Under the pieces are notes generated by a model. It saw only the letters and a list, made by a program, of their open reading frames with translations. It had not been told where the DNA came from and ran no database searches. Of a stretch of 63,774 nt of DNA, positions 92 through 26,590 are shown in pieces. This DNA comes from Galbibacter orientalis DSM 19592 (GTDB lineage Bacteria > Bacteroidota > Bacteroidia > Flavobacteriales > Flavobacteriaceae), in the NCBI RefSeq assembly GCF_000260115.1, contig NZ_JH651379.1, positions 2,968,466 through 3,032,239 of the forward strand. The letters are read 5' to 3'. Position numbers and translations under genes: made by a program. Numbering within the stretch: the first letter of the stretch is position 1; each line of letters opens with the position of its first letter.

Positions 92-2928
<2,837 letters not shown>

Positions 2929-3044: not shown

Positions 3045-3132
3045 AAGCCCCACCTAACCTCCCCTTTGGGGAGGGACAATGGGCAACATTAACCTAGCCC
3101 CCTCTTTGGAGGGGGTTGGGGGAGGCTTTAAG
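3045..3132. repeat. Two inverted copies of a CCTCCCC/GGGGAGG palindromic element in the 23S-5S spacer
   Basis: The left arm AAGCCCCACCTAACCTCCCC leads into TTTGGGGAGG. The right part (CCCCCTCTTTGGAGGGGG, then TTGGGGGAGGCTTT) is a diverged copy of the same unit on the opposite strand. Each unit is itself a hairpin and the pair can form a larger cruciform. The G/C-rich block contrasts with the AT-rich surroundings and looks like a short repetitive extragenic element inserted in the rRNA spacer. That it recurs elsewhere in the genome is expected but cannot be seen in this window. Confidence 0.6.
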
Positions 3133-3137
3133 ATTTA

Positions 3138-3244
<107 letters not shown>

Positions 3245-3249
3245 TTTAG

Positions 3250-3304: not shown

Positions 3305-3799
3305 ATTGAAAATTGAAGGATTGAAAGATTGAAGGATTGAAGGATTTTATCACTTTGCCACTTTGAAAAAAACCGTCTACCGTCTACCGCCTAATGCTTA
3401 CTGCATATAGCTTCTTTGAACCTTTGAACCTTTTGAGTTAAAAAGTTATGCTGTTATGGAGTTACGATGTTACAAAGAAAAAATCGCCTACTGCCTACCG
3501 CATAATGCTTACTGCCCTTTGCCACTTTGATGGATTGAAGAATTCGGAAGTCGGAAGACATAATGCAATGTTCAGTAAGCGTACATTTTCAATCAAGAGT
3601 CAGGAATCAAGAGTCAAGAATGCAAAAAAAAAAAGTATTCTTATTCTTTTGAAAATCTTGTAAACTACAAACCATAAACAATAAACCAAAAACCTACTGC
3701 TTATTGAAGGATTGAAGAAAAAAACTGCCTACCGCCTATAGCCTAATGCTTACTGCCCTTTGAAACTGCTTACTGCATATAGCTTAAAGCATAAAGCCG
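3305..3799. repeat. Patchwork of short tandem words, all with a 7- or 8-nt period
   Basis: Non-coding tract made almost wholly of short arrays. Octamers: ATTGAAGG x4 (3312-3346), CACTTTGC/CACTTTGA (3351-3366), CTTTGAAC x3 (3414-3437), GTTATGCT/GTTATGGA/GTTACGAT/GTTACAAA (3445-3476), and further units at 3518-3541 and 3703-3718. Heptamers: ACCGTCT-type units, ACCGTCT/ACCGCCT/AATGCTT/ACTGCAT/ATAGCTT, at 3372-3413, 3483-3517 and 3724-3799; TCGGAAG x2 (3544-3557); AATCAAG/AGTCAGG/AATCAAG/AGTCAAG (3591-3618); and AAACTAC/AAACCAT/AAACAAT/AAACCAA/AAACCTA (3662-3696). No convincing gene lies here. The origin and role are unknown. Confidence 0.8.
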
Positions 3800-3898
3800 T
3801 TCTGCTCCCCACTAACCCTAAAAACATCAGACAATCTATCAAGCTTTTATCAAATCTGAGGATATTATTTATTAAATTGCTTTTTCAAATTTTAATAC

Positions 3899-25858: not shown

Positions 25859-25894
25859 CCTTTTACAGTTTATTTTTTGTTATAATTATATTAT

Positions 25895-26105
25895 TGTCCG
25901 ATAAAAGCAGACAATGTTTATTGCATTCTACATATATCAAGGGTTAATAGAGTTTTTTAAAATAGCCTCCTTGCTATTAAGAAAAATGAATAAAAAGAGG
26001 AGCTTAGTAATGTTGTTTCTTTAAGCTACTCATGTTGTAATAGTTAAGATTTAGTCTTTGTTCTTTTCTCTTGCAGCGAAGCGGTCTTGTATTTTTACTC
26101 GGACA
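25895..26105 (+). mobile_element. MITE-like element, copy 1
   Basis: 211 bp from TGTCCGATAAAA to TTTTTACTCGGACA, so the ends are inverted repeats (TGTCCGA/TCGGACA, extending imperfectly into TAAAA). It contains no gene. It differs from copy 2 at about four positions. Confidence 0.75.
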
Positions 26106-26126
26106 TAAATGTTATAATTATATTAT

Positions 26127-26337
26127 TGTCCGATAAAAGCAGACAATGTTTATTGCATTCTACATATATCAAGGGTTAATAGAGTTTTTTAAAATAGCCC
26201 CCTTGCTATTAATAAAAATGAATAAAAAGAGGAGCTTAGTAATATTGTTTCTTTAAGCTGCTCATGTTGTAATAGTTAAGATTTAGTCTTTGTTCTTTTC
26301 TCTTGCAGCGAAGCGGTCTTGTATTTTTACTCGGACA
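26127..26337 (+). mobile_element. MITE-like element, copy 2
   Basis: 211 bp, same ends as copy 1, starting exactly 232 bp after it. It carries CCCCCTTGC where the other two have CCTCCTTGC. Confidence 0.75.
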
Positions 26338-26358
26338 TAAATGTTATAATTATATTAT

Positions 26359-26569
26359 TGTCCGATAAAAGCAGACAATGTTTATTGCATTCTACATATA
26401 TCAAGGGTTAATAGAGTTTTTTAAAATAGCCTCCTTGCTATTAATAAAAATGAATAAAAAGAGGAGCTTAGTAATATTGTTTCTTTAAGCTGCTCATGTT
26501 GTAATAGTTAAGATTTAGTCTTTGTTCTTTTCTCTTGCAGCGAAGCGGTCTTGTATTTTTACTCGGACA
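26359..26569 (+). mobile_element. MITE-like element, copy 3
   Basis: 211 bp, same ends, 232 bp after copy 2. The right end is followed by CTAATGTTATAATTAC, which restores the flanking GTTATAATTA, then the trmD stop. Confidence 0.75.
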
Positions 26570-26590
26570 CTAATGTTATAATTACTAGAT

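What the first reader, a model, noticed from the sequence alone, without database searches (positions are those of the whole stretch)
3305..3799. A 500-bp quilt of many different short arrays that all keep a 7- or 8-nt period
Nearly every base here falls in a run of related words: octamers ATTGAAGG, CTTTGAAC, GTTATGNN and CACTTTGN; heptamers ACYGCCT, AATCAAG/AGTCAGG, AAACNNN and TCGGAAG. Unrelated word families share the same unit length and follow one another without gaps, and the ACYGCCT family returns three times in the same internal order (ACTGCCT, ACCGC-T, AATGCTT, ACTGC). Ordinary slippage would expand one word; it would not lay different words on a common 7/8 grid. This suggests a process that copies or templates in steps of 7-8 nt, or the remains of a recombination or protein-binding array. 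It lies directly behind an rRNA operon.
Basis: seen in the sequence. Interest (0 to 1): 0.75.

Follow-up and report, generated by a model that had tools for sequence, protein, structure and literature searches.

The report
Seven- and eight-letter DNA word quilts
Behind a ribosomal RNA operon lies a patchwork of short repeated DNA words, one of dozens in this flavobacterial genome, in which each word keeps a fixed core while its other letters change quickly, so the DNA appears to be copied and shuffled in whole 7- or 8-letter units.

Summary
In 3305-3799 self-match at lag 7 is 0.471 (shuffles 0.271, z 10.1) and at lag 8 0.378 (z 5.3), with no excess at 5, 6 or 9-11. The tract is not unique: it matches about 37 places in its own genome. 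Twenty-eight of these, bounded by BLAST, give z 48.7 at lag 7 and 36.2 at lag 8. All three rRNA operons carry it, at about 84, 491 and 916 bp. Two copies differ mainly by 48 nt (six octamers) and 7 nt (one heptamer).
The words are not plain slippage arrays. Units such as CTTTGNNN keep the core while spacers turn over: in 11 paralogous array pairs core mismatch is 1.4%, flank 4.0%, spacer 21.9%. The same core and step are widespread in Flavobacterium; there cores are kept, but spacers diverge more than loops in only 6 of 16 pairs.
Best reading: core-seeded arrays that gain, lose and swap whole 7/8-nt units and duplicate in blocks; selection on the core is the main rival. Function is not shown. 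A new variant of known heptamer repeats.

The parts
93..2926 (+). 23S rRNA gene
   Evidence: Rfam RF02541
3136..3245 (+). 5S rRNA gene
   Evidence: Rfam RF00001
3251..3284 (+). terminator-like hairpin with T-run between 5S and the quilt
   Evidence: read from the sequence
3305..3799 (.). quilt tract of 7- and 8-nt word arrays
   Evidence: lag statistics, TRF, homologous tracts in the genome
3312..3346 (+). octamer array ATTGAANN
   Evidence: TRF period 8, 4.4 copies
3353..3365 (+). octamer CTTTGNNN, 2 cores
   Evidence: sequence
3372..3413 (+). heptamer block ACYGYCT ... ACTGCAT ATAGCTT
   Evidence: TRF 3372-3393; sequence
3395..3413 (+). left copy of the 19-nt direct repeat TGCTTACTGCATATAGCTT
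3414..3433 (+). octamer array CTTTGAAC
   Evidence: TRF
3445..3473 (+). octamer array GTTAYGNN, 4 cores
   Evidence: sequence; the family is tested
3484..3516 (+). second heptamer block (ACYGCCT family)
   Evidence: TRF 3486-3516
3517..3529 (+). octamer CTTTGNNN, 2 cores
   Evidence: sequence
3544..3557 (+). heptamer TCGGAAG x2 (GAAGTNN family)
   Evidence: sequence
3591..3621 (+). heptamer array TCAAGAN
   Evidence: TRF
3661..3694 (+). heptamer array AAACCNN
   Evidence: TRF; one unit more in the copy behind another rRNA operon
3703..3717 (+). octamer ATTGAAGG x2
   Evidence: sequence
3724..3797 (+). later heptamer blocks (ACYGCCT family, then AGCNTAN)
   Evidence: TRF 3775-3797; sequence
3767..3785 (+). 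right copy of the 19-nt direct repeat; the two copies lie 372 bp apart, and the short third-operon copy has the repeat once

Best explanation
The tract is one copy of a dispersed intergenic repeat family of this flavobacterial genome. Each word is an array whose units have a fixed 4-6 nt core and 2-4 free positions at an exact step of 7 or 8 nt. Shown: tracts differ by whole units and whole blocks; copies lie at many intergenic sites in both orientations; among copies in this genome spacers differ several times more than the surrounding tract while cores hardly differ; the same core and step occur in other genera, where arrays at orthologous sites are present, absent, or built on another core. 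Inferred: units are exchanged in register, during replication slippage or recombination, with the shared core as annealing seed. Swapping units then changes only spacers, and a unit with a broken core drops out of the exchange. On this view the common 7/8 step is the step of the copying process, and no cellular function is needed to keep the words.
For: Period 7 and 8 and their multiples in 28 tracts bounded by BLAST. Two rRNA copies differ by 48 nt = 6 octamers, 7 nt = 1 heptamer, T-run length and a few substitutions. Gap lengths in 387 paralogue alignments peak again at 7 (81) with 31 of 8, against 6 of 9, 0 of 10 and 1 of 11. Core versus spacer in own tracts: middle core .99 .99 .79 .99 .96, spacer .46 .45 .45, in 71 distinct 24-mers. 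Paralogues of at least 93% identity (15 alignments): CTYTG core 2/175, spacer 14/69, other tract positions 3.0% mismatch. With matched flanks, 11 array pairs: core 3/215, spacer 21/96, flank 4.0%; 6 of 14 changed spacers equal a neighbouring unit, 2.8 expected. Spacers differ by 0/1/2/3 letters in 140/118/87/12 cases, against 119/158/70/10 if letters changed independently. In three close Flavobacterium species core 40/40, 38/40, 38/40, spacer 17/24, 11/24, 13/24, loop 18/20, 17/20, 19/20; L367 has one arm CTAAG, the other CTTTG. Arrays with one repeated spacer, as plain slippage gives, exist in other bacteria.
Against: No exchange event was seen directly; no two strains of this species were compared. 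In Flavobacterium the spacers are less alike than the loop in only 6 of the 16 pairs printed, and more alike in 10, so fast spacer turnover relative to nearby non-coding DNA is shown in this genome and three close species, not in general; at another site arrays are nearly unchanged between 98%- and 93%-identical genomes. Gaps of 1-6 nt are common too (584, 186, 74, 45, 45, 61). Core positions were defined in one member of each pair and the alignments are not independent; one search accepts only C[AT][AG]AG cores, printed only pairs with core identity above 0.85, and parsed 15 loci. Conditioning on other phases keeps the contrast only in part: the pentamer TTGAA (60 cases) loses it because another word shares it. 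The column test found no unevenness within single short arrays. Why particular cores recur in distant genera is not explained. Cores kept better than loops fit selection as well.
Confidence: 0.45

Rival explanations
1. Ordinary neutral slippage: old heptamer and octamer satellites expanded, decayed and were duplicated in blocks. Nothing beyond known short tandem repeats is needed.
For: Unit-sized and block-sized changes; arrays of one word in the same genome, such as CCTAAAG about 17 times at 947507 and ACTGCCT about 12 times at 3486650; part of the spacer change is unit shift (6 of 14). Heptamers are the commonest long simple repeats in many bacteria, with a polymerase-footprint proposal (Mrazek 2007 as cited in PMC4679880, and PMC4692102).
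Against: Slippage copies core and spacer together, yet neighbouring spacers agree about as often as composition predicts while cores agree, and spacers differ far more than flanks between close copies in this genome. The same cores recur in other genera.
Confidence: 0.25
2. Selected recognition arrays: a protein binding DNA or RNA reads the core at a fixed 7-8 nt step, so cores are kept by selection and spacers are free.
For: Cores are better kept than both spacer and loop in 15 of the 16 Flavobacterium pairs printed (the pairs were filtered on core identity above 0.85); at one site whole arrays are built on CAAAG in some species and CTAAG in others; polarity, 24 forward arrays with a reverse partner upstream and none with only the opposite order; 29 of 45 array ends lie within 20 nt of an ORF edge on the CTTTG side and 0 of 44 on the other (my count). 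A binding role was proposed for TAACTGA repeats (PMC4679880).
Against: In the window's genome the orientation is random relative to codirectional neighbours (6 sense, 8 antisense, 7 unresolved) and the CTYTG, GTTAY and ACTG arrays show next to no inverted pairing. Several unrelated cores share each tract, so several proteins would be needed. Spacers that differ more than flanks are not explained by free drift alone.
Confidence: 0.2
3. Miniature mobile element or hairpin element: arrays are the ends of a small element that inserts between genes.
For: Presence and absence at orthologous sites in Flavobacterium; inverted arms with fold z median -4.7 in 24 pairs and partly matching spacers (0.598 against 0.465 +- 0.033); a 372-bp block between 19-nt direct repeats in the window.
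Against: In the listed hits of one genome (G160) I noticed no long recurring spacer order, by eye; transposases and constant ends were not searched for. The window tract does not fold better than shuffles (z -0.09). The 372-bp difference may as well be a deletion by recombination between the repeats.
Confidence: 0.1

Closest known systems
TAACTGA heptamer direct repeats of Beggiatoaceae, Cyanobacteria and Bacteroidetes (MacGregor 2015, PMC4679880; abstract and sections 3 and 10 seen)
   Same: Intergenic 7-nt arrays, also in Bacteroidetes; indels mostly in 7-nt increments between two Cyanothece; 'larger assemblages of heptamer repeats' noted in Elizabethkingia; G066 here has TAACTGA arrays next to CTTTG octamers.
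   Different: One exact word, mostly just upstream of start codons in the BOGUAY genome; no octamers, no fixed core with turning-over spacer, no core switching or block syntax in the parts I saw.
Heptanucleotide long simple sequence repeats, and tandem heptanucleotides of Calothrix (the name short tandemly repeated repetitive sequences is recalled)
   Same: 7-nt step, tandem, intergenic, length change in units.
   Different: Arrays of one word; here several words of 7 and 8 nt follow one another and spacers are free.
G-rich GGGAATC / GGGGAYT heptamers of Xanthomonas and Nostoc (PMC4692102, passages only)
   Same: Heterogeneous heptamer units, (GGGANTN)n, in which positions 1-4 and 6 are conserved and others vary; nearly 190 copies per Xanthomonas genome; extensive length and sequence variation between close relatives. 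This is the nearest published case that I saw of constant and variable positions in a 7-nt unit.
   Different: A single quadruplex-forming family; no octamers, no mixture of words, no core switching in the passages seen; core against spacer rates not given there.
REP/BIME palindromes (PMC3733652, PMC2817692, PMC3116915; search listing only)
   Same: Many intergenic copies; inverted pairs in Flavobacterium.
   Different: 20-40 bp palindromic units; no 7/8-nt step mentioned in the listing.

Membership tests
Heptanucleotide simple sequence repeats / STRR | tandem units of 7 nt | tested here: met
   lag 7 z 10.1; octamers also present (lag 8 z 5.3)
Heptanucleotide simple sequence repeats / STRR | intergenic location | tested here: met
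   in 42 of 44 tracts no ORF of 100 aa or more is overlapped by more than 80 nt (crude ORF calls)
Heptanucleotide simple sequence repeats / STRR | length change by whole units | tested here: met
   48-nt and 7-nt differences between rRNA copies
Heptanucleotide simple sequence repeats / STRR | array of one word whose copies are alike over the whole unit | tested here: not met
   core .96-.99 (position 3.79), spacer about .45; several words per tract
TAACTGA repeats | word TAACTGA in tandem | tested here: not met
   the word does not occur in 3305-3799 on either strand
CRISPR array | repeats of tens of bases separated by unique spacers of similar length | tested here: not met
   periods 7, 8 and their doubles only
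REP/BIME | short palindromic unit with GTAG/CGTC tag and RAYT enzyme | not tested
   window tract has no unusual fold (z -0.09); tags and RAYT not searched
Miniature transposable element | constant terminal inverted repeats and target duplication | tested here: inconclusive
   19-nt direct repeats bound a 372-bp block, but they are repeat words themselves
Protein-binding array (iteron-like) | a protein that binds the core | not testable with these tools
   sequence only

The most novel reading that the evidence does not exclude
Bacteroidetes and some other phyla carry a distinct class of genetic array: fixed 5-nt core and fast-changing 3-nt spacer at an 8-nt step (and 7-nt counterparts), rewritten in place by a unit-wise templating process with core-specific recognition, so that whole arrays can switch core in concert.
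Probability: 0.2. Interest if true: 0.88.

Novelty: new variant of a known kind. Interest (0 to 1): 0.6.

Why it matters
The 7-nt preference of bacterial repeats has been a statistical remark with a guess attached (polymerase footprint, as cited). These arrays let it be tested: sister copies in one genome and orthologous sites in many Flavobacterium species show unit gain or loss, spacer replacement and core switching, so the step size and the copying process can be measured. If the core is read by a factor, it is an unrecognised sequence-specific system with tens to about two hundred matches per core in many large Flavobacterium genomes. At the least, these tracts are fast-evolving markers and recombination sites.

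Tried and rejected
Unbiased 20-kb samples of five genomes were too sparse in tracts to build a lexicon; the own-genome sample was used as intergenic background. A column test within single arrays gave nothing (mean chi 5.5 against 6.0 in the null): arrays too short and mixed. A plain 3'-UTR role was rejected for this genome because orientation is random. A structured RNA was rejected for the window tract (z -0.09), though another tract folds well (z -3.9). Transfer of the whole composite between species was rejected: outside G000 the matches to a 661-bp composite are at most about 80 nt long, mostly single-word arrays; 13 of 60 genomes, G000 included, have any. The reversed word as control was not neutral: in G061 87 matches against 49, G060 11 against 18, G037 15 against 12, G052 15 against 11; GTTTC seems to be a word itself there. 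Plasmid records gave no match. In the first orthologue table several loci were mis-oriented and were redone; L459 was aligned in the wrong orientation, so that alignment was not used. In one search rows with weak anchors were left unprinted by the script. Viral contigs were fetched but not read. Cold-shock proteins as binders were considered (named as candidates in PMC4679880) but not tested.

Full report
Observation. The interval 3305-3799 matches itself at lags 7 (0.471, z 10.1) and 8 (0.378, z 5.3), with the harmonic at 14 (z 4.6) and no excess at 5, 6 or 9-11. The highest value in 1000 shuffles at any lag from 3 to 30 is 0.358, and 595 windows of the remaining sequence peak at 0.336 and 0.345. 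TRF lists only periods 7, 8, 14 and 16 here. The tract follows 23S (93-2926) and 5S (3136-3245).

A genome-wide family. The tract as a query finds 138 matches in the window's own genome (3.95 Mb and 0.56 Mb contigs), in about 37 places by my grouping. In 33 fetched stretches around those matches plus the window, periodicity gives 54 tract pieces of 23,053 bp in all, merged to 44 tracts; a few may be other short-period repeats. I also took 28 tracts bounded by BLAST matches to the window tract (27 intervals plus the window; places with one short match were left out), 16,337 bases. Here lag 7 gives z 48.7, lag 8 z 36.2, lag 14 z 22.8, lag 16 z 21.4, lag 24 z 19.7, lag 21 z 8.2, lag 17 z 6.6 and lag 15 z 5.9; the other lags from 3 to 13 are at 3.0 or below, several of them negative. 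Similarity to a periodic query is a mild selection for period. In 42 of 44 tracts no ORF of 100 aa or more is overlapped by more than 80 nt. Neighbour context is codirectional 21, convergent 13, divergent 10, against 86, 26 and 32 for background intergenic gaps of 100 bp or more; ORF calls are crude. Orientation by word content is random relative to codirectional neighbours (6 sense, 8 antisense, 7 unresolved). Within tracts the CTYTG, GTTAY and ACTG arrays nearly always repeat in one orientation; only the CTTC family shows inverted order (19 reverse-then-forward, 4 forward-then-reverse).

Three rRNA operons, three sizes. The genome has three matches to the 23S-5S end, and all three continue into the same spacer start. 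By period the third carries about 84 bp of quilt, the window copy 491 and the second 916. The window and third copies share both flanks, to 3372 on the left and 3805-3869 on the right. The window has two copies, 372 bp apart, of a 19-nt repeat (3395-3413 and 3767-3785) that the third copy has once. This may be a gain or a deletion. The second copy differs from the window over 571 aligned columns by 48 nt in the ATTGAANN array (six units), 7 nt in the AAACCNN array (one unit), T-run length and a few substitutions, and has a further block duplication. In same-genus relatives 10 downstream regions of 5S could be read by eye (G005 three, G006 three, G004 three, G002 one). One more of G006 and those of G003 end at the contig edge, and G001 gave no match. 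None of the 10 has this quilt; one (L525, G006) has a short GTTANNNN octamer run at the same place. G005 and G004 keep the same downstream gene beside an rRNA operon, with a short plain spacer. So among the sampled relatives the tract is particular to this lineage.

Fixed core, free spacer. For CTTTG N11 CTTTG, with the middle unit unconstrained, the middle core agrees .99 .99 .79 .99 .96 and the spacer .46 .45 .45 in 71 distinct 24-mers; the pooled-composition expectation for spacers, from 95 cases with duplicates, is .38 .41 .47. Conditioning on other phases keeps the shape for TTTGA (17 cases: 1, 1.71.94, 1 against .29 .53 .47) and, less clearly, for sets of 1 to 18 cases; TTGAA (60 cases) loses it because the word ATTGAANN shares it. 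ACTGNNN (7), GAAGTNN (7), GTTAYGNN (8) and ATTGAANN (8) show the same contrast with their own cores, more weakly, and GTTAY loses it at other phases. In 387 paralogue alignments, mismatch for the CTYTG family is core 4.1%, spacer 31.2%, other tract positions 10.1% at 80-88% identity (317 alignments), and 1.1%, 20.3% and 3.0% at 93% or more (15 alignments); the other four families show core below spacer too, except ATTGA in the smallest class, where both are 0. These alignments overlap, are counted from both sides, and define the core in one member. Eleven array pairs with flanks matched at 88% or better give core 3/215, spacer 21/96 and flank 4.0%; 6 of 14 changed spacers equal a neighbouring unit against 2.8 expected, so part of the turnover is unit shift or shuffle. 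Spacers differ by 0/1/2/3 letters in 140/118/87/12 cases, against 119/158/70/10 if letters changed independently.

Other genera. A pattern with free gaps, CTTTGN{1,6}CTTTGN{1,6}CTTTG, matched 58 of 119 genomes of the order. The window's genome has 109 hits against 2 for the reversed pattern, and all 33 listed of those 109 have gaps 3 and 3; in some other genomes the reversed pattern is as common (G060 11 against 18). In 101 genomes of the genus of G061, 74 have a CTTTG triple and 47 a CTTAG triple at step 8. Many large genomes have tens to about 200 matches of each (G061 118 and 105, G207 57 and 197, G211 176 and 71), but others of 5 Mb or more have few (G060 13 and 16, G210 19 and 12, G218 20 and 42). 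The reversed control is mostly 0 and at most 22. I take the genus as Flavobacterium because its loci match named Flavobacterium contigs at up to 88% over a kilobase. Of 19 listed Flavobacterium loci 18 have two or three different spacers in the array shown; Pantoea, Paraburkholderia, Streptomyces and Reinekea arrays repeat one spacer, as slippage would give; planctomycete, verrucomicrobial, acidobacterial, chlamydial and cyanobacterial loci often carry CTTTGCGY variants.

Flavobacterium arrays are polar. In 79 loci (19 named, 60) 55 forward arrays were found: 24 have a reverse partner upstream within 250 nt, none has only the opposite order, 31 are alone. Paired regions fold better than shuffles (median z -4.7, range -12.2 to -0.7, n 24) and their arms share spacers somewhat more than chance (0.598 against 0.465 +- 0.033). 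In 25 named Flavobacteriales loci, by my count, 29 of 45 arrays with a called ORF on that side end within 20 nt of the ORF edge on the CTTTG side and 0 of 44 on the other; 2 of 50 arrays lie inside a called ORF. At one orthologous site, matched in 47 of 101 genomes, 30 loci were read: by eye 17 carry arrays of CAAAG or CTAAG type or mixtures (L366; L367 has one arm of each), one an ATTGA-type word, and 12 have spacers without arrays. For 15 parsed loci one search printed the 16 pairs with equal unit numbers and core identity above 0.85. Core is higher than both spacer and loop in 15 of 16; spacer is below loop in 6 and above it in 10. In the three closest (L358-L360) cores are 40/40, 38/40, 38/40, spacers 17/24, 11/24, 13/24 and loops 18/20, 17/20, 19/20. 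At a second site arrays are likewise present or absent by species, while between 98%- and 93%-identical genomes they are nearly unchanged.

Mechanism. Shown: difference in whole units and blocks; core constancy; spacer divergence above that of flanks between copies in this genome; replacement of arrays at a fixed site between species. Inferred: the unit is the step of the copying event; the core is the annealing seed; units lacking the core leave the pool. Selection on the core by a binder is the main alternative. The Flavobacterium pairs favour it about as much, since there the core stands out and the spacer mostly behaves like the loop; random orientation and several unrelated cores per tract in this genome speak against it as the whole story. 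Ordinary slippage accounts for the unit-number changes but not easily for spacers that differ where flanks agree.

Known work. Heptamer excess in bacterial repeats, the polymerase-footprint guess, heptamers with constant and variable positions (GGGANTN), and mixed heptamer assemblages in some Bacteroidetes are in print (PMC4679880, abstract and sections 3 and 10; PMC4692102, passages; PMC4060949, passages). The exact strings of five words returned no paper, and six searches on short repeats in bacteria, Bacteroidetes or Flavobacterium listed nothing whose title or abstract start describes core/spacer octamers. The library holds open-licence papers only, and the listings were cut at 12 to 20 rows.

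Noticed in passing
window 25878-26584: Three tandem copies of a 232-bp unit, 98% alike (TRF).
   Followed up: no
window about 3045-3125: The 23S-5S spacer holds CCTCCCCTTTGGGGAGG-type repeats; a similar GGGGAGGG repeat sits in a Flavobacterium intergenic region (L385), so it may be another widespread intergenic repeat.
   Followed up: no
own genome C1:3042504 (L042), C1:947507 (L030), C1:3486650 (L017): Long heptamer arrays of one word: CTTGTCT-like over 312 nt, CCTAAAG about 17 copies, ACTGCCT about 12 copies; probably young slippage expansions.
   Followed up: partly
L229, L257, L259: In Parachlamydiaceae, Chitinophaga and Verrucomicrobiales, CTTTGNNN arrays face CAAAG arrays in inverted repeats, by eye perfect with spacers included in L229 and L257 and near-perfect in L259.
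   Followed up: partly
L525 (G006), just after the 5S terminator: A short GTTANNNN octamer run at the place where the window's genome has its quilt.
   Followed up: no
G066 loci L175, L180, L182: TAACTGA heptamer arrays stand beside CTTTG octamer arrays in the same or neighbouring intergenic regions, linking the MacGregor repeats with these words.
   Followed up: no
Viral-contig scan: 55 viral-contig stretches carry four CTTTG cores at step 8; not examined for host or spacer diversity.
   Followed up: no
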